NCBI GenBank assembly: GCA_029882995.1
Contig: JAOUJV010000015.1
Location: forward strand, 1-35,191
Reading direction: 5' to 3'
DNA length: 35,191 nt
Source of the DNA: Gammaproteobacteria bacterium
Lineage (GTDB): Bacteria > Pseudomonadota > Gammaproteobacteria > DAOVJZ01
This document shows positions 19,205 through 30,660 of this stretch, in pieces. The notes below the pieces were generated by a model. It saw only the letters and a list, made by a program, of their open reading frames with translations, was not told the DNA's origin and made no database searches. The translations under genes and the position numbers were made by a program. The first letter of the stretch is position 1; each line of letters begins with the position of its first letter.

Positions 19205-20230
19205 ATGTCTAGAAAGTACCTGCTTGTCTTATTGATAGCATTATTTTCAGCCAATATCATGGCCGATGTGGTCAAGCTCAAGGCCGATCATCCGGATCGC
19301 TATGTCGTGGTCAAGGGCGATACCCTCTGGGATATTTCAGCCCGTTTCCTCGAAAACCCATGGAAGTGGCCGGAAATTTGGCATGTAAATACCCAAATCA
19401 AGAACCCGCATCTTATTTATCCAGGAGATGTTATTGCACTGACCTGGAAAGATGGCAAACCGCGCCTTGAAATACAACGTGGTCGACAGACAATAAAACT
19501 ATCACCCAATGTACGTGAATCACGGATTGAATCTGCGATACCGACCATTCCGGTTGATGCCATTCGCCAGTTTATGAACAGTAATCGTATTGTCGGCAAG
19601 GATGAAATAGACAATGCAGCCTATATTCTGTCACTGGCATCGGACCATCTGATCGGTGGAGAAGGGATAGAAGTCTTTGTGCGTAATCGCAAGAAAGAAG
19701 ATGCCACCAGTCGTTACGAAGTGCTGAGAGCAAACAAGCCGTTTATTGATCCTGTTAGCGGTGAAGAAATCGGTTATGAAGCCCTTTATCTGGGTGATTC
19801 GGAAATGCAGGCTGAAGGTGACCCGGCACGTTTCATGCTGACACAAACACGCCGTGAAGTGTTGAAAGGCGATCGTTTGTTGCCGATGAAAGATGAAGCC
19901 ATACATCATTACTACACACCACGTTCACCTTCGAATCAGATTGAAGGTCGTATTATTTCGGTTGTTGACGGTGTCAACCAGGTTGGTTCCTATCAGGTTG
20001 TTGCTATTAACAAGGGCGAAACCGACGGTCTGAATTCAGGTAACGTGCTGGCCATTTATCAAACAGGTGAGCAGGTGCGTGACAGCATGAATAAAAATGA
20101 AATGGTTAAACTCCCTAACGAGCGAGCTGGTCTTTTAATGGTTTTCCGCACTTATGAACGGGTAAGTTATGCGTTAGTGATGGAAGCTATTAAGCCTATA
20201 CATGTTCTTGATACTGTCGTAAACCCGTAA
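19205..20230 (+). CDS. Exported LysM-domain protein
   Basis: A 341-residue protein with a signal peptide (SRKYLLVLLIALFSANIMA, cleavage after residue 20) and a LysM domain at about 32-79 (GDTLWDISARFLENPWKWP, then NPHLIYPGDVIAL), which binds peptidoglycan glycan chains. The remainder (about 95-341) is a beta-rich region of unknown function with no catalytic motif that I recognise. Orthologues in the same place, between def and dprA, are common in gammaproteobacteria. No membrane anchor follows the signal peptide, so it is probably periplasmic and wall-associated. The stop codon marks the beginning of repeat copy A. Confidence 0.9.
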   Translation: MSRKYLLVLLIALFSANIMADVVKLKADHPDRYVVVKGDTLWDISARFLENPWKWPEIWHVNTQIKNPHLIYPGDVIALTWKDGKPRLEIQRGRQTIKLSPNVRESRIESAIPTIPVDAIRQFMNSNRIVGKDEIDNAAYILSLASDHLIGGEGIEVFVRNRKKEDATSRYEVLRANKPFIDPVSGEEIGYEALYLGDSEMQAEGDPARFMLTQTRREVLKGDRLLPMKDEAIHHYYTPRSPSNQIEGRIISVVDGVNQVGSYQVVAINKGETDGLNSGNVLAIYQTGEQVRDSMNKNEMVKLPNERAGLLMVFRTYERVSYALVMEAIKPIHVLDTVVNP

Positions 20231-20354
20231 AAAACTCCTAAAACGGTGCTGGCGGTGTTAAAAAGAAACTCGGATTAGCGTTATTTACCAGTATGTAAAC
20301 TCCGCATCCTTGTTTCTTTTTGCCTAGCCATCATCCGTTTTATGACCTTTTTAT
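20228..20354 (+). repeat. Dispersed structured repeat, copy A
   Basis: A 93-nt core (20244-20336) matches copy B (30459-30550) at about 80 of 93 positions by eye, with one single-base gap. The core folds on itself: AAAAAGAAAC (20260-20269) with GTTTCTTTTT (20312-20321), then GGAT with ATCC (20272-20275 and 20306-20309), and an apical TTTAC/GTAAA hairpin. An outer stem TAAAACGG (20239-20246) with CCGTTTTA (20335-20342) closes it. The complementarity continues imperfectly outward to the LysM gene stop codon on the left and about 20354 on the right. It may act as a transcript 3'-end structure for the LysM gene. No open reading frame is present. Confidence 0.85.
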
Positions 20355-20392
20355 AATTTCCAAAGAGATAATTTTCCAACAGTAAAATACGT

Positions 20393-20431
20393 TATACTTC
20401 TTCCACCAAAGGATTGGTGGGAGATGTTTTC
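20393..20431 (+). promoter_or_regulatory. dprA leader: -10 and hairpin overlapping the ribosome binding site
   Basis: TATACT (20393-20398) is a plausible -10, though no good -35 is seen. Just after it CCACCA (20403-20408) and TGGTGG (20415-20420) form a six-pair hairpin with a six-base loop. The 3' arm runs into GGTGGGAG, the likely Shine-Dalgarno for the ATG at 20432, so the hairpin could hide part of it. If transcription starts about seven bases after the -10, the hairpin would lie at the very 5' end of the mRNA. Confidence 0.35.
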
Positions 20432-21550
20432 ATGGAAGAAGAAATTTTTAATTGGTTGGTCGTTGTAAATACCCCTGGTCTGGGGATTCATACTTTTCAT
20501 ACCCTGCTGGAACAAGGCTTTTCACCGTCACGTTTATTACAAGCGGTGCATGATAATAAACCGGTTGAAGGGGTAAACCGGAAAATGATTGAGTGGTTAA
20601 GATCACCTGATACAAAAACATGCTTAAAGGATATGGCATGGCTTGAACAGGAAAATAACCATATTGTTTTATTTACCGATCCTCTGTACCCACCACTGTT
20701 AAAGGAAATTATTGATCCACCGCCTGTACTTTATGTGCATGGGGATGTTTCCTGTTTATCACATTACCAGATTGCGATGATCGGCAGCCGAAACCCGACA
20801 GGTGGCGGCAGTGAAACTGCGCAACGATTTGCACATAGTCTTGCACAAACCGGCTTTGTTATTACCAGTGGTCTGGCATTAGGTATTGATGCTGATAGCC
20901 ATCGCGGAGCAATCAGTGCAGGAGGTAAAACGATTGCTGTTACAGGTACAGGACTGGATCGCGTTTATCCGGCACGCAATAAAATGCTCGCACATGAAAT
21001 TGTTGAAACCGGTGGTGCACTGGTTTCCGAATTTCCGATTGGTACTCCGCCATTGGCAAATCATTTTCCTCGTCGCAATCGTATTGTCAGTGGACTTGCA
21101 TTGGGTGTGCTGGTAATTGAAGCGGCACGGCGCAGTGGCTCACTGATCACAGCCAGATTAGCGGCTGAACAGGGACGCGAAGTCTTTGCCATCCCGGGCT
21201 CAATACACAACCCGTTAGCCAAGGGATGCCACCGCCTTATTCGTCAGGGTGCCAAGCTGGTTGAGACCGTAGAGGATATCCTTGAAGAATTAGGGCCATT
21301 GGCACATGTTGAATTTTTAGACAAAAATCCGGTCGAAAAAGCTGAAAACAAGGTATTTCCGGATAATGATGAGCAGAGATTGCTTGAATACATCGGTTAT
21401 GACCCGATATCCATTGATATGCTTATAGAGAGGTCTGGATTGACGGCTGAGATAGTTTCATCCATGCTGTTAGTATTGGAGCTGCGGGGTTTTGTCTCTT
21501 CTGCAGCAGGGGGTATCATTATAAAAACAACAAAAGAGAGCGTGCTATGA
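20432..21550 (+). CDS. dprA: DNA-processing protein A
   Basis: A DprA/Smf of about 372 residues. It loads RecA on incoming single-stranded DNA during natural transformation. The Rossmann-like core carries MIGSRNPT (117-124) and SGLALGIDADSHRGA (146-160), followed by the GTGLDRVYP and NRIVSGL segments and a C-terminal winged-helix region (about 300-372). A TTG at 20414 could extend the frame by six residues, but the ATG at 20432 has a well-placed GGGAG and is preferred. The stop codon overlaps the smg start (ATGA). Presence of dprA alone does not show that the organism is competent, since most gammaproteobacteria keep it. Confidence 0.95.
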   Translation: MEEEIFNWLVVVNTPGLGIHTFHTLLEQGFSPSRLLQAVHDNKPVEGVNRKMIEWLRSPDTKTCLKDMAWLEQENNHIVLFTDPLYPPLLKEIIDPPPVLYVHGDVSCLSHYQIAMIGSRNPTGGGSETAQRFAHSLAQTGFVITSGLALGIDADSHRGAISAGGKTIAVTGTGLDRVYPARNKMLAHEIVETGGALVSEFPIGTPPLANHFPRRNRIVSGLALGVLVIEAARRSGSLITARLAAEQGREVFAIPGSIHNPLAKGCHRLIRQGAKLVETVEDILEELGPLAHVEFLDKNPVEKAENKVFPDNDEQRLLEYIGYDPISIDMLIERSGLTAEIVSSMLLVLELRGFVSSAAGGIIIKTTKESVL

Positions 21551-22032
21551 AGGAAAATGTGCTGGATATTTTGGTGTATCTCTTTGAAAACTATATAAAT
21601 GATGATGAAACAGAACTGGCAGTTGATGAGGAGACATTAAGAACGGAATTGGTAGAATCAGGCTTTGCCGAAAAAGAAGTGGTTAAGGCATTTTCGTGGC
21701 TTGAGGATTTGAATCCCAGAGTATTGGAAGAATATGATGGAGCCCGTCTGACTCACACGGACTCGATTCGTGTCTATACTGACCGGGAGAATGAGAAACT
21801 GGATATGGTCTGCAGAGGCTTCCTGATGTTTCTGGAGCAGGTCGGTATCCTTGATGCACATTCAAGAGAGTTAATTCTTGATCGGGTAATGGCACTGGAA
21901 GCGGATGATATTTCGCTCGAACAATTGAAGTGGGTCATATTATTGGTATTGTTTAACCAGCCGGGGCAGGAAGAAGCCTTCGCCTGGATGGAAGACCTGG
22001 TTTATGAAGAAATGGTAGGTGCGCCGCACTGA
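21547..22032 (+). CDS. smg: Smg family protein (DUF494)
   Basis: A 161-residue acidic protein of the Smg/DUF494 family, recognised by its start (MKENVLDILVYLFENYI), its helical acidic pattern and its invariable place between dprA and topA. Its biochemical role is unknown. Translation is probably coupled to dprA through the four-base ATGA overlap. No membrane segment or catalytic motif is seen. Confidence 0.92.
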   Translation: MKENVLDILVYLFENYINDDETELAVDEETLRTELVESGFAEKEVVKAFSWLEDLNPRVLEEYDGARLTHTDSIRVYTDRENEKLDMVCRGFLMFLEQVGILDAHSRELILDRVMALEADDISLEQLKWVILLVLFNQPGQEEAFAWMEDLVYEEMVGAPH

Positions 22033-22066
22033 TCAAATGGAACAGGTTAGGAATTTTTTATTAACT

Positions 22067-22091
22067 GCCCGCGTTTCGCGGGCTTTGCTTT
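22067..22091 (+). terminator. Intrinsic terminator between smg and topA
   Basis: A GC-only seven-pair stem (GCCCGCG with CGCGGGC, 22067-22083) with a TTT loop is followed by TTTGCTTTT. It ends 15 bases before the topA start, so it would also lie in the topA leader. Either topA has a promoter within the stem region or some read-through supplies its transcript. Confidence 0.7.
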
Positions 22092-22105
22092 TCCAGTAGG
22101 GTGTT

Positions 22106-24400
22106 ATGAGTAAAAACCTTGTATTAGTAGAATCGCCGGCAAAATCAAAAACGATTAAAAAATATCTGGGTAAGGATTATCAGGTATTGGCGACCTATGG
22201 TCATGTCCGTGACTTGTTACCAAAGGAAGGCGCAGTTGATACGGAACACGATTTCAAAATGACATATCGTGCAATCGAAAAAAATCAGAGACACATTGAT
22301 GCGATTGCCAAGGAAATGAAAAAGGCGGACACATTGTTGCTCGCAACTGACCCGGATCGCGAAGGTGAAGCAATTTCATGGCATGTATGTGAATTATTAA
22401 AAGATAAAAAACTGCTTAAAGACAAAAAGGTAAAGCGTGTTGTATTTCACGAAATTACCAAGAATGCCATTATTGATGCAGTAGAGCATCCACGTGATTT
22501 ATCGATGGATTTGATTAATGCACAGCAGGCGCGTCGTGCACTGGACTTTCTGGTTGGTTTTAATTTATCACCATTGCTGTGGAGAAAAATTCGACCCGGT
22601 CTGTCAGCCGGTCGTGTACAAAGTCCGGCATTACGCATGATCGTTGAACGTGAGGAAGAAATTGAAAAATTTGAACCACGTGAATACTGGACCATTGAAG
22701 CTGATATGCAACAGAACAATCAGGACTTTGTTTCCAGACTGACGCAGTATCAGGGAGAAAAACTGTCCCAGTTCAGCATCAATAATGAAAAGGATGCCAA
22801 GGCGGCGCATGCTGTTCTGATCAAAGCAGCCAACGGTAAATTAAAAGTTACCAGCGTTGAAAAGAAAAAGCGCAAGCGTAATCCGGCAGCACCGTTTACA
22901 ACATCCACATTACAACAGGAAGCCTCGCGCAAGCTGGGGTTCACTGCACAGCGTACCATGCGTATTGCACAGCAGTTATATGAAGGTGTTGATGTTGGCA
23001 GTGGTACAGTTGGTTTAATTACCTATATGCGTACAGACTCGGTGAGCCTGGCGCAGGAAGCACTGGATGAAATTCGTGAATCCATCGCAAACCGTTTTGG
23101 CAAGGACAAGGTGCCAAACAAGCCGCATGTGTATAAAACCAAGGCGAAGAATGCACAGGAAGCACACGAAGCGATTCGTCCCACTTCAGTCAAACGTACG
23201 CCGGAAATTATCAAGGAATACCTGAACAAGGATCAGCTCAAGTTATATCAATTGATCTGGAAACGTACCATGGCATCGCAAATGATTCATGCCACCATGG
23301 ATATGGTGGGTGTTGATTTGGCCGCCGGTGACAAGGGCGTGTTCCGCGCTAATGGTACCACCGTTGTTGAACCCGGTTTTATGGCTGTGTATCAGGAAGA
23401 TGTCGATGATGCCAAGAAGGAAGAAAGTGATGCTGAAAAAATTCTGCCGCCAATGAAAGAAGGCGATGAAATTGAGCTGAAAAAAATCAGGAATGAACAG
23501 CATTTCACCGAACCACCTCCACGCTATACGGAAGCAAGTCTGGTCAAGACACTGGAAGAACACGGTATCGGTCGCCCATCAACCTATGCCTCCATTATTT
23601 CAACCTTGCAGAACCGCGAGTATGTCGAAATAGATAAGCGCCGGTTTATGCCAACCGATGTAGGACGGGTTACCAATCGCTTCCTGACCCAGCACTTTAC
23701 CAAGTATGTTGATTATGATTTTACCGCCAATCTTGAAGATGAGCTGGATGCGATTGCACGTGGTGAGGAAGAATGGATTCCGCTGTTGAAAAAATTCTGG
23801 AGTCCGTTCAAGAAACTGGTAGTCGAAAAAGACAAAACAGTTGATCGCAAGGATGTAACACATGAACCGCTGGATGAAAAATGTCCCAAGTGCGGAAAAG
23901 GCCTTTCAATTCGTCTCGGAAGACGCGGACGTTTTGTGGGTTGTGATGAATACCCTGAATGTGACTACACACGTAATGTAGGTGATGACAAAGGCAGTAG
24001 CGAACCGGAAATTGTTGAGGGACGCAAGTGTCCTGAATGCAGTTCGGATCTGGTGATCAAAACCGGACGTTATGGCAAGTTTATTGGATGCGGTGGTTAT
24101 CCTGATTGTAAATATATCGAGCCACTGGAAAAACCGGAAGACACCGGTGTTGATTGTCCCAAATGCAAAAACGGAAGCATGCTCAAGCGCAAGTCGCGGC
24201 GTGGCAAGATTTTCTATTCCTGTTCGCTGTATCCGGATTGTGATTATGCCGTCTGGAATGAGCCTATCGAAGAGGCTTGCCCGGATTGCAAATGGCCCAT
24301 GCTGACAGTCAAGACAACCAAGAAACGCGGCACCGAAAAGGTGTGTCCACAGAAAGATTGCAAATTTGTCGAAGCAGTTGAAGACAAGGAAGCATCCTGA
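22106..24400 (+). CDS. topA: DNA topoisomerase I (type IA)
   Basis: A 764-residue topoisomerase that relaxes negative supercoils. The Toprim domain has E9 (VESPAKSKTI) and DPDREGE (82-88). The active-site tyrosine is Y307 in YMRTDSVS. The HGIGRPSTYASII motif is present. The C-terminus carries four zinc-ribbon units in a row from about residue 593: three of the CPxC...C(x)nC type and a last one of CPDC...CPQKDC form. It is somewhat shorter than the E. coli enzyme because the further C-terminal ribbon-like domains are absent. It follows smg after a strong terminator-like hairpin and precedes purE by 36 bases. Confidence 0.97.
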   Translation: MSKNLVLVESPAKSKTIKKYLGKDYQVLATYGHVRDLLPKEGAVDTEHDFKMTYRAIEKNQRHIDAIAKEMKKADTLLLATDPDREGEAISWHVCELLKDKKLLKDKKVKRVVFHEITKNAIIDAVEHPRDLSMDLINAQQARRALDFLVGFNLSPLLWRKIRPGLSAGRVQSPALRMIVEREEEIEKFEPREYWTIEADMQQNNQDFVSRLTQYQGEKLSQFSINNEKDAKAAHAVLIKAANGKLKVTSVEKKKRKRNPAAPFTTSTLQQEASRKLGFTAQRTMRIAQQLYEGVDVGSGTVGLITYMRTDSVSLAQEALDEIRESIANRFGKDKVPNKPHVYKTKAKNAQEAHEAIRPTSVKRTPEIIKEYLNKDQLKLYQLIWKRTMASQMIHATMDMVGVDLAAGDKGVFRANGTTVVEPGFMAVYQEDVDDAKKEESDAEKILPPMKEGDEIELKKIRNEQHFTEPPPRYTEASLVKTLEEHGIGRPSTYASIISTLQNREYVEIDKRRFMPTDVGRVTNRFLTQHFTKYVDYDFTANLEDELDAIARGEEEWIPLLKKFWSPFKKLVVEKDKTVDRKDVTHEPLDEKCPKCGKGLSIRLGRRGRFVGCDEYPECDYTRNVGDDKGSSEPEIVEGRKCPECSSDLVIKTGRYGKFIGCGGYPDCKYIEPLEKPEDTGVDCPKCKNGSMLKRKSRRGKIFYSCSLYPDCDYAVWNEPIEEACPDCKWPMLTVKTTKKRGTEKVCPQKDCKFVEAVEDKEAS

Positions 24401-24436
24401 TTTTTCAATAAAACATTAATTGGAGATTTTTATATC

Positions 24437-24937
24437 ATGTCAAAACCATTTATTGCTATTTTAATGGGTTCAGATTCCGATCTACCTGTAATGCAATCCA
24501 CAATCGATCAGCTAAAAGCATTCGATATTCCGTGTGAAGTCAGGGTGTCTTCTGCCCATCGTACACCGGAAGCCACCAGCAGTTATGTACACGATGCCGA
24601 TGCCCGTGGTTGTGCAGCATTTATCTGTGCTGCCGGTCTGGCCGCTCATCTGGCCGGTAATGTCGCTGCACATACTATCAAGCCGGTAATTGGTGTACCG
24701 ATGGACGGTGGCCCGTTATCAGGAATGGATGCACTGTTATCTACAGTACAAATGCCAGCCGGTATTCCGGTTGCAACAGTGGCAATCGGCAAGGCCGGTG
24801 CAAAGAATGCCGCTCATCTGGCAGCACAAATTCTTGCTATTACCGACAGCAGTGTTGCAGCCCGTATTAAAAAAGGGCGTGAAGATAACGCAGCAGACAT
24901 CATGAAAAAGAATGATGAACTGCAAAGCAAGCTATAA
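24437..24937 (+). CDS. purE: N5-carboxyaminoimidazole ribonucleotide mutase
   Basis: A 166-residue class I PurE that converts N5-CAIR to CAIR in purine synthesis. The nucleotide-binding [10 protein letters not shown] (10-19) and SSAHRTPE (38-45, catalytic H41) are typical. [22 protein letters not shown] and [18 protein letters not shown] complete the signature. Class I PurE needs PurK to supply N5-CAIR, yet purK is not beside it here; tsaC follows after 13 bases. purK must lie elsewhere in the genome. A good GGAG precedes the start. Confidence 0.97.
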
Positions 24938-24950
24938 GGAACCATAGGCA

Positions 24951-25508
24951 TTGCGCTGGTTACAGTTGCGCAAGGCAGTCAGGGTTCTTAATCACGGCGG
25001 CATTATTGCGTATCCTACAGAATCGGTTTACGGACTGGGATGTGATCCAAACAACGGATCCGCCGTATATCGCTTGTTATGGCTGAAGCAACGATCAGTT
25101 GATAAAGGTTTAATCCTGATCGCCTCATCATTGAAACAGCTTAAGCCCTACCTCGCCGAGATAGGCGAAGAATATCTCGAACGCGCGTTGATGACATGGC
25201 CGGGTCCGGCAACATGGTTAATACCTGCCAGTAACAAAACACCGCATTGGTTACGTGGAAAGCACAACACGATTGCTGTGCGTGTCACCAATCACCCACT
25301 GGCATCAGCACTGTGCCAGCAATTCAAAGGGCCTGTTGTTTCTACCAGTGCCAATAAAACCGGCGATCCGGTAACAAAACAGGTAGATCAAGTCAGGCAG
25401 ATATTTAGCGACGATATCGATTTCTATCTGGAAGGCGCAATCGGTGATCTGGAACGGCCAACAGAAATTCGTGACATTATGACGAATGAAATCATACGGG
25501 CAGGCTAG
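24951..25508 (+). CDS. tsaC: Threonylcarbamoyl-AMP synthase
   Basis: A 185-residue YrdC-domain protein that makes threonylcarbamoyl-AMP for the t6A modification of ANN-reading tRNAs. The short form, without the Sua5 C-terminal domain, is the TsaC type. YPTESVYGLGCDP (21-33), the KQRSVDKGLILIAS segment and STSANKTGDP (near 131) mark the ATP, threonine and bicarbonate site. The start is a TTG: no upstream ATG fits, and TAAGGA lies nine bases before it. It is separated from purE by 13 bases. The operon ends at the strong terminator just downstream. Confidence 0.93.
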   Translation: MRWLQLRKAVRVLNHGGIIAYPTESVYGLGCDPNNGSAVYRLLWLKQRSVDKGLILIASSLKQLKPYLAEIGEEYLERALMTWPGPATWLIPASNKTPHWLRGKHNTIAVRVTNHPLASALCQQFKGPVVSTSANKTGDPVTKQVDQVRQIFSDDIDFYLEGAIGDLERPTEIRDIMTNEIIRAG

Positions 25509-25520
25509 ATGATGTAATAA

Positions 25521-25556
25521 AAAAGGCCAGATGAATATTCATCTGGCCTTTTGCTT
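25521..25556. terminator. Bidirectional intrinsic terminator (perfect 32-bp palindrome)
   Basis: Positions 25521-25552 form an exact palindrome: AAAAGGCCAGATGAAT and its complement. It has T-runs in both directions and sits between the converging tsaC and rsd genes, so it can end transcripts from both strands. Confidence 0.93.
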
Positions 25557-25573
25557 TAAAGGGCAATATCTAA

Positions 25574-26044
25574 TCAGGCTGTTGCAGCAGATGATATGTT
25601 ACTAAAGGCATCAATTAACTGGTCTTCCAGTTCAATACGATCTGCCAGTTTTTCACCAAGCTTGGAGAGATCCTGTTCCAGTTCTTCAGGTGAGGTGGTG
25701 TCCTTGGTGTATTTGTCGTTGAAATCAACAATGGTTTGAGTTATTTCCGCAATACGTGAATAGATTTGTTCGGCCACTTCCTTTACAACCTGACGGCGTT
25801 CTGCATTATCCGCAAAGTGCTTGTATAGATGGAAGTGTGCTTCGGCGGTGTAATCAATTAATGAATTACAAAAATCCTGTAACAGTTTGCCAATGCTTTT
25901 GAGATCATCGTCTTTATCAAAAGGATGATTTTCTGCCAACTTGCCATACAGCGTCAGCATATCAGTACGTGCATCAACCAGTTTCTGGATTAATTCACGT
26001 GACCTTGTTCTACGTTCTACAAATTGTTTTATTTCGGCAGCCAT
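25574..26044 (-). CDS. rsd: Rsd/AlgQ family anti-sigma factor
   Basis: A 156-residue all-helical protein. Residues 58-74 (FCNSLIDYTAEAHFHLY) and about 125-143 (LSKLGEKLADRIELEDQLI) align well with the E. coli Rsd signature (FCQSLVDY and LSDIGEALEARFVLEDKLI, from memory). Rsd binds region 4 of the vegetative sigma factor and frees core polymerase for alternative sigma factors; AlgQ is the Pseudomonas counterpart. The gene has its own good promoter and a GAGGAA ribosome binding site. It stands alone between a terminator and the transporter gene. The family assignment is firm; that it acts on sigma70 here is inferred. Confidence 0.85.
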   Translation of the reverse strand: MAAEIKQFVERRTRSRELIQKLVDARTDMLTLYGKLAENHPFDKDDDLKSIGKLLQDFCNSLIDYTAEAHFHLYKHFADNAERRQVVKEVAEQIYSRIAEITQTIVDFNDKYTKDTTSPEELEQDLSKLGEKLADRIELEDQLIDAFSNISSAATA

Positions 26045-26113
26045 ACTGCATTCCTCTTTTGGTGTTTATCCCCACTCATAAACAGGATGAGGTTATTATT
26101 AATAGCTGGATTT

Positions 26114-26142
26114 TTTATACACGAAACCAGAGAGATAGACAA
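26114..26142 (-). promoter_or_regulatory. Candidate sigma70 promoter of rsd
   Basis: On the minus strand TTGTCT (26142-26137) and TATAAA (26119-26114) are separated by exactly 17 bases, about 70 bases upstream of the rsd ATG. This is one of the best-looking promoters in the window. Confidence 0.55.
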
Positions 26143-26219
26143 CTCTTTTAATCCATTACTTGTTTTGTCTGGTATAACTAAGATCTTGTTTTTAAGGCTT
26201 ATTAGGGATCGCTAATGGA

Positions 26220-27143
26220 TTATTCCCTGTGTTTAAAGCGGAAATAAGAGGTTGCGCCGGCGGAGGTTAAAATACACCAGACAGCAAACAATGCGCCTGG
26301 TAATGCGGTTTCGGGTGTGAAGTGTTTCAGTGCCAGCGCGACTCCCAGCCCCGCATTTTGCATTCCTATTTCAATGGCAAGCGTTAGTTGATGTTTATGA
26401 TCAAAACCAAACCAGCGTGCCGCAAACCATCCGGCGAGATAACCAAGTGCATTAAGTATCACAACCAGTAACAGGATTTCAGCACCAACAGAAGCAATCC
26501 GTTCCTGATTGGCGGCAACGGCATAACTGCAAATAATAATTATCGCAATTGCGGCAATAGCCGGTGCAATATCACTGGCACTTTTTTTCAAAGTGTTATT
26601 CATGAAATGGCGCAACACCATCCCGGCGATCAGCGGCAGTAATACGGTTTGTAAAATGGTTTTCATCATGCCCCAGAACGGAATAGGCATAAATACACCA
26701 CCGAGCAGTTCAACCAGTGACGGGGTTACCAGTGGTGATAAAAACGTGGCGACAGTGGTTAATGCAATAGAAAAGGCCAGTGCACCACCGGCCAGATACA
26801 CAATCACATTACTGGCCATGGCACCGGGCGCACAGCCGACAATAATGAATCCAAGCGCAATCTCTTTGGGCAGATCAGTGAAAAAGGCTACAGCAAAGCC
26901 CAGTAGGGGCATGACGGAATACTGGGTCAGAACGCCCAGGCCAATCCGTCTGGGGTGTTTCAAGGTATCATTCATGTCTTCTGGTTTCAGAACCAGTCCA
27001 AGCGCAAACATGGTCGCGGCAAAAAACCAGAGAAAACTTTGTTTGAAAACCAGAAACAGGGGTGGGTGTATATAGGCAGCAATGGCCCCAATCAGGGTAA
27101 GCGGCGCCAGACCATTGGCAATCAAACGAAAAATAAATAGCAT
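26220..27143 (-). CDS. Bile acid:sodium symporter (BASS) family transporter
   Basis: A 307-residue membrane protein with about nine or ten hydrophobic helices. Two signature segments of the BASS fold are visible: GCAPGAMASNVIVYLAGG (103-120) and EIGMQNAGLGVALALK (258-273), the discontinuous helices that bind sodium and substrate. Bacterial members transport varied organic anions, including pantoate and keto acids, so the name bile acid is historical and the substrate is unknown. It lies upstream of rsd with a 175-base gap containing the rsd promoter, so it is probably a separate unit. Confidence 0.9.
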   Translation of the reverse strand: MLFIFRLIANGLAPLTLIGAIAAYIHPPLFLVFKQSFLWFFAATMFALGLVLKPEDMNDTLKHPRRIGLGVLTQYSVMPLLGFAVAFFTDLPKEIALGFIIVGCAPGAMASNVIVYLAGGALAFSIALTTVATFLSPLVTPSLVELLGGVFMPIPFWGMMKTILQTVLLPLIAGMVLRHFMNNTLKKSASDIAPAIAAIAIIIICSYAVAANQERIASVGAEILLLVVILNALGYLAGWFAARWFGFDHKHQLTLAIEIGMQNAGLGVALALKHFTPETALPGALFAVWCILTSAGATSYFRFKHRE

Positions 27144-27230
27144 GATTTTAAAGAGTTATCGTTATCCTGAGAGCATGTTATAGGAATTAGTATGAGGATA
27201 CACGGTAAATTCCGGAGTGAGCAGGTCTAA

Positions 27231-28301
<1,071 letters not shown>

Positions 28302-28370
28302 TTACAATCTCACAGTTTTTCTTGTTACACTTCCTGAATATCTTTATTTCCCCTTTGTTTTTAGTACGTT

Positions 28371-28424
28371 AAAAAAAAATTAAAAAAGGCTTGTGAGAGT
28401 TTTGAAAATACGTATACTGCGCGC
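28371..28424 (+). promoter_or_regulatory. Strong promoter of DUF47-pit with A-tract and GC discriminator
   Basis: TTGTGA (28391-28396) and TATACT (28413-28418) are 16 bases apart. Two A-tracts (about 28372-28387) precede the -35 like an UP element, and GCGCGCC follows the -10. This combination resembles stringently controlled stable-RNA promoters, although the next gene is protein-coding. About 90 bases of leader follow before the ATG. No clear Pho box is seen. Confidence 0.55.
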
Positions 28425-28508
28425 CAATACAAAAGATTAAATAAACCAGATGCTGAATGAGCAGCGTCGCAACGGTACTGAAAGGCAGTGCCAATAGGAG
28501 AAAGAAGT

Positions 28509-29183
28509 ATGCCTAGTTATTTAACGAACCTTTTTGGTCGTTCTCCCGTCCGTCCCCTGCAAGAACACATGACAAAAGTTTATGCATGTGTCACCCAACT
28601 AACCCCCCTTTTTGAAGCACTCGTCGCAAATGATCAGGAAAAGATCAAGGAAGTTCGTCAGGACATTTCAGCGATGGAAAGCGAAGCTGATGAATTGAAA
28701 TGGGAGTTACGTAACCATTTACCAACCGGTTTATTCATGCCGGTGGACAGACGCGATTTACTCGAAGTACTCCAGATGCAGGACAAGATTGCAAATCAGG
28801 CACAGGATATTGCCGGTTTGATTATTGGCCGTCGCATGACGTTACCTGAACAAATGCATGAATCATTTCTTGTTTATGGCAGACGAGTTGTTGATGCCTG
28901 TAAACAGGCACTCAAGGTTATTAATGAGCTGGATGAACTGGTTGAGACCGGTTTTCGCGGTGCCGAAGTGGAGCGGGTTCAGGACATGATTAATGAACTC
29001 AATGCCATCGAGAATGATACAGATAAGTTGCAAATAAAACTGCGTGATATGTTGTTTGAGCTTGAAGACACATTAAGACCAACGGATGTGATGTTTACAT
29101 ATCGATTGCTGGAAAGTGTGGGTAATGTAGCTGATTTATCACAACGTGTTGGCAGTCGCTTGCAACTGTTGTTGGCAAGATAG
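28509..29183 (+). CDS. DUF47 (PhoU-like) phosphate transport accessory protein
   Basis: A helical protein of about 224 residues in the DUF47/TIGR00153 family, structurally related to PhoU. The family is usually encoded directly before a Pit permease, as here (11-base gap), and is thought to regulate it. The pattern ISAMESEADELKWELRNHLP, FMPVDRRDLLEVLQMQD and NDTDKLQIKLRD matches the acidic metal-binding helices of the fold. A GTG at 28488 could lengthen the frame by seven residues, but the ATG at 28509 has AGGAGA at ideal spacing and is chosen. Confidence 0.92.
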   Translation: MPSYLTNLFGRSPVRPLQEHMTKVYACVTQLTPLFEALVANDQEKIKEVRQDISAMESEADELKWELRNHLPTGLFMPVDRRDLLEVLQMQDKIANQAQDIAGLIIGRRMTLPEQMHESFLVYGRRVVDACKQALKVINELDELVETGFRGAEVERVQDMINELNAIENDTDKLQIKLRDMLFELEDTLRPTDVMFTYRLLESVGNVADLSQRVGSRLQLLLAR

Positions 29184-29194
29184 GGGATAACATA

Positions 29195-30448
29195 ATGGAT
29201 CAGATTTCAATTTATATTATCCTCGCTGCTGTCTTTGGATTATTAATGGCATGGGGCATTGGTGCCAACGATGTGGCCAATGCGATGGCGACTTCAGTTG
29301 GTTCAAAAGCGATCACGGTTTATCAGGCCATTTTCATTGCCGCCATTTTTGAGTTTGCCGGTGCCTATCTGGCCGGTGGTTCGGTTACTTCAACAATTCG
29401 AAAAGGGATTGTTGATAGTTTGTATTTTGCCGACAACCCGGATTTACTTGTCTTTGGTATGTTGGCCTCGTTATTGTCTGCCGGTATCTGGTTATTTATT
29501 GCATCGCGCAATGGCTGGCCGGTATCAACCACACACACGATTGTTGGTGCCATTGTTGGTTTTGCCGCAGTGGGTGTGGGAATGGATGCGGTGAAATGGG
29601 GCAAGGTCGGCACCATTGTTATGAGCTGGATAGTTTCACCATTACTCGCCGGCACAATTGCTTTAATGATTTTCCGTTCTATTCAGAGACTGATTCTGGA
29701 CACAGATAAACCACTGGATAACGCGCGCAAGTATGGGCCTGTTTATATCTTTGCAGTGGTATTTGTAATTGCCATGCTCACCATGAAAAAAGGACTCAAA
29801 CACCTTAGTCTGGATATCAGCACAGGTGAAAGCTTTGTCTACGCTATCGCAGTGGCATTTGTATTTGCAATCATTGGTGTATTCCTTGTACGTCGTGTCA
29901 AGGTAGACCCGGATGCAGATCTCAATTTCCACTACGCTAACGTAGAAAAGGTGTTCGCTGTCTTGATGGTCTTTACCGCCTCGGCAATGGCATTTGCACA
30001 TGGTTCAAACGATGTGGCCAATGCTATTGGTCCTGTCGCTGCTGTTGTGAGTACCGTTACAACCGGCGGTGTTTTGCAAAAATCAGTTTTACCAACATGG
30101 GTTCTGTTGCTGGGCGGCGGTGGTATTGTCTTTGGTCTGGCGACTTATGGTTTCAAGGTAATGAAAACAGTAGGCCAGAAGATCACTGAACTGACACCCA
30201 GCCGTGGTTTTGCTGCCGAGCTATCTGCTGCTTCAACGGTTGTACTGGCTTCCTTTACCGGTTTACCGGTTTCGACAACTCACACACTGGTAGGTGCTGT
30301 GCTTGGTGTTGGTCTGGCGCGCGGTATTGCAGCATTGAATATGCGTGTTGTTGGCAACATCTTCATGTCATGGGTGGTGACATTACCGGCAGGCGCGATT
30401 ATGTCTATTATGTTCTTCTATATGCTTAAGGGTATTTTTGCACCTTAA
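29195..30448 (+). CDS. pit: Pit-family inorganic phosphate permease
   Basis: A 417-residue polytopic membrane protein of the PiT family, importing phosphate with protons or sodium. Both inverted-repeat signatures are present: GANDVANAMATSVGS near residue 23 and GSNDVANAIGPVAAV near 270. Each is followed by a VSTTHT segment (GWPVSTTHTIVGAIVG and GLPVSTTHTLVGAVLG). The gene is coupled to the DUF47 gene. Its last codons and stop codon form the left arm of repeat copy B, and a terminator hairpin lies further downstream. Confidence 0.96.
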   Translation: MDQISIYIILAAVFGLLMAWGIGANDVANAMATSVGSKAITVYQAIFIAAIFEFAGAYLAGGSVTSTIRKGIVDSLYFADNPDLLVFGMLASLLSAGIWLFIASRNGWPVSTTHTIVGAIVGFAAVGVGMDAVKWGKVGTIVMSWIVSPLLAGTIALMIFRSIQRLILDTDKPLDNARKYGPVYIFAVVFVIAMLTMKKGLKHLSLDISTGESFVYAIAVAFVFAIIGVFLVRRVKVDPDADLNFHYANVEKVFAVLMVFTASAMAFAHGSNDVANAIGPVAAVVSTVTTGGVLQKSVLPTWVLLLGGGGIVFGLATYGFKVMKTVGQKITELTPSRGFAAELSAASTVVLASFTGLPVSTTHTLVGAVLGVGLARGIAALNMRVVGNIFMSWVVTLPAGAIMSIMFFYMLKGIFAP

Positions 30449-30567
30449 GTCCCTGAAGCGGCGCTGGCTGTGTTGAAAAGAAACTCGAATTTGCTCATTT
30501 ACTAGCATGTAAACTCCGCATTCTCGTTTCTTTTCGCCTTGCCATCATCCACTTCAGGAACTTAAGG
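30443..30567 (+). repeat. Dispersed structured repeat, copy B
   Basis: The core 30459-30550 matches copy A at about 86% by eye. The inner stem is GAAAAGAAAC (30475-30484) with GTTTCTTTTC (30526-30535), then GAAT with ATTC, and the same TTTAC/GTAAA apex. The outer stem is longer than in A: CCTTAAGTCCCTGAAG (30443-30458) with CTTCAGGAACTTAAGG (30552-30567), 15 of 16 paired. The left arm contains the pit stop codon (30446-30448). Compared with A, two stem positions change on both sides and keep pairing (A-T to G-C, and G-C to A-T). Confidence 0.88.
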
Positions 30568-30574
30568 CACGAAG

Positions 30575-30660
30575 GAAGCGGCACTGGCAGTATTGATCAA
30601 AAGGCATGGAATCTTGTTTCATGCCTTTTTCTTTTGTATGGCAGGTGATATACCATCATC
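30575..30660 (+). repeat. Partial relative of the dispersed repeat, copy C
   Basis: The left 22 bases (30575-30596) match copy B (30455-30476) at 19 positions, and the right end has the shared CCATCATC (30653-30660). The middle differs entirely and holds a terminator hairpin instead. It begins eight bases after copy B ends and has the same orientation. Confidence 0.6.
30599..30635 (+). terminator. Intrinsic terminator downstream of pit
   Basis: AAAAGGCATG (30599-30608) pairs with CATGCCTTTT (30620-30629), with further weak pairs into the loop, followed by a T-rich run. It lies inside repeat copy C and separates pit from aroE. Confidence 0.8.

What the first reader, a model, noticed from the sequence alone, without database searches (positions are those of the whole stretch)
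20228..30567. Covarying 93-nt structured repeat placed right after two stop codons
Copies A (20244-20336) and B (30459-30550) agree at about 80 of 93 positions, lie in the same orientation, and each begins next to the stop codon of an unrelated gene (LysM protein and pit). Both fold into the same long hairpin with a conserved apex (TTTAC, six-base loop, GTAAA, then CTCCGCAT). Two differences are compensatory: A20260-T20321 becomes G30475-C30535, and G20273-C20308 becomes A30488-T30522. That is what selection on a structure would leave. I cannot match it to REP, ERIC or another named family. It could be a 3'-UTR regulatory or processing element, a small mobile palindromic element, or a new RNA family.
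Basis: seen in the sequence. Interest (0 to 1): 0.72.

Follow-up and report, generated by a model that had tools for sequence, protein, structure and literature searches.

The report
Palindromic mini-transposons landing at stop codons
The two "structured repeats" are copies of a short, gene-less jumping DNA hairpin, widespread in two bacterial phyla, that inserts at stop-codon-like sites (often at a real stop codon, whose copy it leaves intact) and whose two arms change together at the DNA level rather than as a regulatory RNA.

Summary
A covariance model finds both window copies (81.5 and 63.4 bits) and 21 copies in this genome. Related copies occur in 43 of 274 genomes sampled across the class, 18 to 61 per genome where the model was run elsewhere, and in Bacteroidota. 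In a gapless alignment of 34 distinct copies, 92% of cells pair (73% shuffled) and 15 of 17 positions of the main stem show double changes. Three mismatched motifs stay fixed at constant spacing. G-T cells are no commoner than A-C cells, so pairing is kept in the DNA palindrome, not as an RNA. The elements are mobile: one empty site shows a 3-bp TAA duplication, A and B are absent from a sister genome, and in Pseudomonas borbori 31 of 35 left flanks are YTAR and 21 of 35 have exact 4-bp duplications. Outer arms match terminal repeats of IS5-type insertion sequences. Insertion beside stop codons follows from TTAA/CTAG/TAA/TGA targets. Best reading: a superfamily of IS5-type MITEs with an unusually conserved hairpin core of unknown function. 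In this genome alone all 20 classifiable copies follow a co-oriented gene, which is unexplained.

The parts
20234..20347 (+). Copy A: whole palindromic element (114 bp); flanks AAAA / TTTT, no direct duplication preserved
   Evidence: ends inferred by register with copy B; site empty in sister genome G001
20252..20330 (+). Copy A: conserved core (model R1 match, 63.4 bits)
20228..20230 (+). Stop codon TAA of the LysM-protein ORF directly before copy A
30449..30561 (+). Copy B: whole palindromic element (113 bp)
   Evidence: site empty in sister genome G001
30467..30544 (+). Copy B: conserved core (model R1 match, 81.5 bits)
30445..30448 (.). Left TTAA flank of copy B (target-site duplication); contains the pit stop codon TAA 30446-30448
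30562..30565 (.). Right TTAA flank of copy B (target-site duplication)
30496..30521 (+). Conserved apex CATTTAC-N6-GTAAACTCCGCAT of copy B
20282..20307 (+). Conserved apex TATTTAC-N6-GTAAACTCCGCAT of copy A
30574..30596 (+). Probable left-half remnant of a further copy (GAAGCGGCACTGGCAGTATTGAT)
   Evidence: sequence read; the same arrangement follows the copy on contig C162 (L006)

Best explanation
Copies A and B are non-autonomous palindromic transposable elements (MITEs) of IS5 type. Shown: the outer arms are terminal inverted repeats; insertion occurs at YTAR (TTAA, CTAA, CTAG, TTAG) or TNA (TAA, TGA) and duplicates that target; copies are present or absent at the same place in close relatives; in two classes the same ends flank IS-type transposase genes. 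Inferred: IS5-type transposases move them in trans, and copies at stop codons persist because the duplicated target restores the stop, so the upstream gene is unharmed. The inner part is a conserved core: freely changing but complementary stems separated by fixed mismatched motifs (GCGTT/GCCTTG, TC/TC, TCA/CTCC) and a TTTAC/GTAAA tip. Inferred: arm complementarity is kept at DNA level, by one arm templating the other during replication and/or by selection on the extruded DNA hairpin.
For: Copy number: 21 in the own genome; 18, 61 and 55 in three other genomes. Empty site: G277 reads GCATGCAGGTTAAAGCTTCTCC (G169 nearly the same) where G022 has the element between two TAA. Loci A, B and L005 are empty in the sister genome G001. 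P. borbori: 31/35 left flanks YTAR and 21/35 exact 4-bp duplications. IS links: Xanthomonas IS with ends GAACCTGTTCACGATCTT, its transposase over the NCBIfam IS5_3 cutoff; P. borbori ~1-kb IS with ends CAGGCCGTTGAAAAA and a frameshifted DUF772 transposase, the same ends bounding the hairpins there. DNA-level pairing: 952 cells, 877 Watson-Crick, 16 G-T, 24 A-C. Orientation not consistently biased in G001, G022, G166 and P. borbori.
Against: No IS5-type transposase was found in the own genome; the only DDE_Tnp_1 hit reads as IS982-like, my reading of the sequence. Mobilisation in trans was not tested. One hairpin core sits inside several unrelated classes of ends, which simple internal deletion of one IS does not explain. 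Copy A and some others of the genus lack direct duplications and have complementary flanks instead. The P. borbori IS fragments score below the NCBIfam cutoffs and one scores better as IS1182 than as IS5. All 20 classifiable copies in the own genome are co-oriented with the upstream gene, which random insertion does not predict.
Confidence: 0.85

Rival explanations
1. A structured RNA family: a sense-strand 3'-UTR element that ends, protects or processes mRNAs, kept by selection on the RNA fold.
For: Very strong covariation. Conserved internal loops at fixed spacing. In this genome all 20 classifiable copies follow a co-oriented gene, several inside apparent operons (gapA|pgk, gspG|gspH, hscA|fdx). 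At the shared hldE|hldD locus the element differs at 4 of about 127 sites while flanking coding DNA is about 85% identical.
Against: G-T cells (16) are no commoner than A-C cells (24), so there is no wobble tolerance on either strand. Orientation is mixed in four other genomes, the sister genome included (8:5, 5:4, 4:12, 5:8). Target duplications and empty sites show DNA insertion. No Rfam match reaches threshold. No U-run follows the hairpin.
Confidence: 0.1
2. The hairpin core is itself a separate functional or mobile module that many different IS5-type MITEs have captured, recognised as a folded strand by an unknown protein. (A refinement of the best explanation, not exclusive of it.)
For: Core conserved across different end classes and two phyla; fixed spacing with free stems; extra hairpin modules add discrete lengths of 155 to 228 bp.
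Against: The core was not seen moving without IS-type ends; no partner gene identified.
Confidence: 0.2
3. Intrinsic terminators that happen to resemble one another.
For: Location after stop codons; strong hairpins.
Against: The terminator scan calls neither copy; it finds a separate terminator after B at 30599-30629. The sequence core is shared across two phyla and absent at orthologous sites.
Confidence: 0.02

Closest known systems
MITEPsy1 of Pseudomonas syringae (PMC3189936), an IS5-type MITE shown to transpose
   Same: Short, gene-less, inverted repeats, inserts at CTAG or YTAA with a 4-bp duplication; proposed parent IS is of the IS5 family; relatives reported in several genera
R0 and R2 intergenic repeats of P. 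fluorescens SBW25 (PMC2718517)
   Same: About 90-110 bp, ends identical to those of resident ISs, interpreted as MITEs, fold into stem-loops
   Different: Sequences not printed in the held text; relation to this core untested
IS1272 / IS1182-family transposition (PMC5678879)
   Same: An insertion sequence whose targets are stem-loops; one P. borbori transposase fragment scores best against the IS1182 model
   Different: IS1272 replaces its target stem-loop without duplication; here targets are duplicated
REP / BIME elements (PMC3733652)
   Same: Dispersed intergenic palindromes
   Different: REPs are 20-40 bp with a GTAG- or CGTC-type tag; these are 113-140 bp with target duplications

Membership tests
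IS5-type MITE | Short, without coding capacity | tested here: met
   113-140 bp, palindromic throughout
IS5-type MITE | Terminal inverted repeats | tested here: met
   Outer arms complementary; class-specific ends
IS5-type MITE | YTAR (4 bp) or TNA (3 bp) target duplication | tested here: met
   31/35 YTAR, 21/35 exact in P. borbori; TAA duplication against an empty site; TTAA at copy B. Not seen at copy A
IS5-type MITE | Ends shared with an autonomous IS | tested here: met
   For two end classes only: Xanthomonas IS, P. borbori IS. Not found for the window's own class
IS5-type MITE | Moved in trans by the transposase | not testable with these tools
   needs a transposition assay
Known Rfam RNA family | Match to a curated covariance model | tested here: not met
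   best E 0.03 with 22 of the 135 bits required
RNA kept by selection on its fold | Wobble pairs tolerated above other mismatches | tested here: not met
   G-T 16, A-C 24 of 952 cells
REP element | 20-40 bp palindrome with tetranucleotide tag, RAYT transposase | tested here: not met
   Length 113-140 bp with target duplications; RAYT not searched
MITEPsy1 | Same interior sequence | not tested
   Interior not printed in the paper; end motif absent from six Pseudomonas/Stutzerimonas genomes

The most novel reading that the evidence does not exclude
A folded single strand of DNA, not the double helix, is the recognised form of the element: fixed mismatched motifs at constant spacing on stems of free sequence form a shape read by a conserved protein in two phyla, while each arm is continually rewritten from the other. 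The element would combine ordinary IS5-type insertion with structure-read DNA, in the manner of integron attC sites, and in this lineage it has been tolerated or recruited only in the sense orientation.
Probability: 0.22. Interest if true: 0.78.

Novelty: new variant of a known kind. Interest (0 to 1): 0.52.

Why it matters
It accounts for one class of dispersed long intergenic hairpins that could be mistaken for RNA families, and shows how target choice (stop-codon-like motifs) lets a transposon enter gene-dense genomes without harm. It also offers a clean test for telling DNA-level from RNA-level covariation: G-T against A-C cells. The conserved core across different end classes and two phyla is unexplained and can be tested directly.

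Tried and rejected
Searching papers for the core sequence gave only unrelated primers. Looking for the own genome's mobilising IS by DDE_Tnp_1 found only an IS982-like gene. Two requests failed on coordinates or handle type. The plasmid IS5 gene near one copy (L195) showed no clear inverted repeats. One query against the phage collection had no match. An early idea of an integron attC-like site was dropped as a membership claim because insertions carry target duplications. An early idea of orientation-driven RNA function was weakened by four genomes without consistent bias. Literature searches for an IS5-type MITE with this core found only MITEPsy1 as a near relative; most subscription papers are not held, so an earlier description cannot be excluded.

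Full report
What is there. Copy A (about 20234-20347) and copy B (30449-30561) are two members of one palindromic family. blastn with copy A finds the first members in the own genome, and both copies fold well beyond shuffled expectation. A covariance model made from 34 copies, neither A nor B among them, finds just these two sites in the window and 21 in the 2.42-Mb genome.

Spread. The apex pattern CGGAGTKTAC-N-GTAMATGAG occurs in 43 of 274 genomes drawn across the class, with zero hits to the reversed control pattern. The model finds 18, 61 and 55 copies in three further genomes. Plasmids rarely have it (27 records of 72,556 with any match to one query, seven of them only to IS ends); the same query found no phage record, and seven viral stretches carry the apex.

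Anatomy. Distances are constant: GCGTT begins 25 nt before CAT[TG]TAC, and GCCTTG 17 nt after CTCCG, in most copies. Total length is about 135-137 bp in several end classes, 140 bp in P. borbori and 113-114 bp at the two window copies. Between the fixed motifs the stems are free in sequence but complementary. On the gapless 34-row alignment 92.4% of cells pair (73.4% shuffled, 30-47% when slid), with 153 double-change cells against 45 shuffled and a covariation score of 0.512 against 0.165, none of 500 shuffles reaching it.

DNA or RNA. In 68 fixed-geometry copies the variable stems give 952 cells: 877 Watson-Crick, 16 G-T, 24 A-C, 35 other. An RNA under selection should tolerate G-U on its own strand; here neither strand does. 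Fifteen 140-bp copies within P. borbori show the same: three stem positions are each split about evenly between two Watson-Crick states, with four G-T and no A-C cells of 210, and the two stem segments occur in all four combinations. I infer that the arms are kept alike at the DNA level. In the window's genus the palindrome often runs outward past the insertion site into the flanks (for example TCATAAG/CTTATGA at the copy on C32), which fits arm templating but has not been demonstrated.

Mobility. In family f22 two genomes are empty (GCATGCAGGTTAAAGCTTCTCC in one) where G022 has GCATGCAGGTTAA-element-TAAACAG, a TAA duplication taking in the stop codon of the upstream gene. The sites of A, B and one further copy are empty in the sister genome, while the hldE|hldD copy is shared. 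In P. borbori 31 of 35 left flanks are YTAR and 21 of 35 have identical 4-bp flanks.

Link to insertion sequences. The arm TAAGAACCTGTTTACGATC matches both ends of a Xanthomonas IS whose transposase passes the NCBIfam IS5_3 cutoff. In P. borbori the ends CAGGCYGTTGAAAAA bound the hairpins and also a ~1-kb IS with a frameshifted transposase carrying DUF772, scoring below cutoff to both IS1182 and IS5 models. Several other end classes were seen but not tied to an IS here. The own genome has no such transposase that I could find, consistent with old copies.

Why stop codons. YTAR and TNA targets contain TAA, TAG or TGA. At copy B the left TTAA contains the pit stop. In the wider set the distance from the upstream stop to the apex peaks at 60-61 nt (17 copies outside the own genus), the length of the left arm. 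In P. borbori only 8 of 35 abut a stop exactly, so stop codons are favoured or tolerated, not obligatory.

What remains open. First, why one core is shared by different end classes and by two phyla. Second, the orientation in this genome: 15 tandem sites all sense and none antisense, two-sided p about 6e-5, with flanking genes recognisable by sequence (my reading), against 8:5, 5:4, 4:12 and 5:8 in four other genomes (gene calls there are by simple ORF rules). Third, the discrete longer forms (155 to 228 bp) made by extra hairpin modules.

Verdict. An IS5-type MITE superfamily with a conserved, DNA-level covarying hairpin core: a new variant of a known kind. MITEPsy1 is the nearest described relative in behaviour (PMC3189936); shared descent was not tested.

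Noticed in passing
Own genome contigs C118, C34, C32, C9, C6, C133 and others (loci L266-L286): All 20 classifiable copies lie downstream of a co-oriented gene (15 tandem sense, 0 antisense), several inside apparent operons such as gapA|pgk and hscA|fdx; the sister genome and three others show no such bias.
   Followed up: partly
L288-L326 (P. borbori): Elements come in discrete lengths 140, 155, 170, 184, 197, 212, 228 bp through extra branch hairpins (e.g. GGGTGCGAGCCCAGTC) added at the internal loops on either arm.
   Followed up: partly
L007, L010, L011, L029: Copies in the window's genus have their own branch module, GCCCGTATATTGGGT, before the apex.
   Followed up: no
L221 against L004 (hldE|hldD): The one copy shared with the sister genome differs at 4 of about 127 sites while coding flanks are about 85% identical.
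   Followed up: no
window 30574-30596 and L006 after the element: Two copies are followed by a left-half remnant of a further copy.
   Followed up: no
L213 (G276) and L216 (G278): At the same gene end as the L050 insertion, a different genus carries a related element without the apex, and G278 carries an unrelated insert: recurrent insertion at one stop codon.
   Followed up: no
L186, L188 and L190 (viral contigs of 18-19 kb): Two copies each in contigs filed as viral.
   Followed up: no
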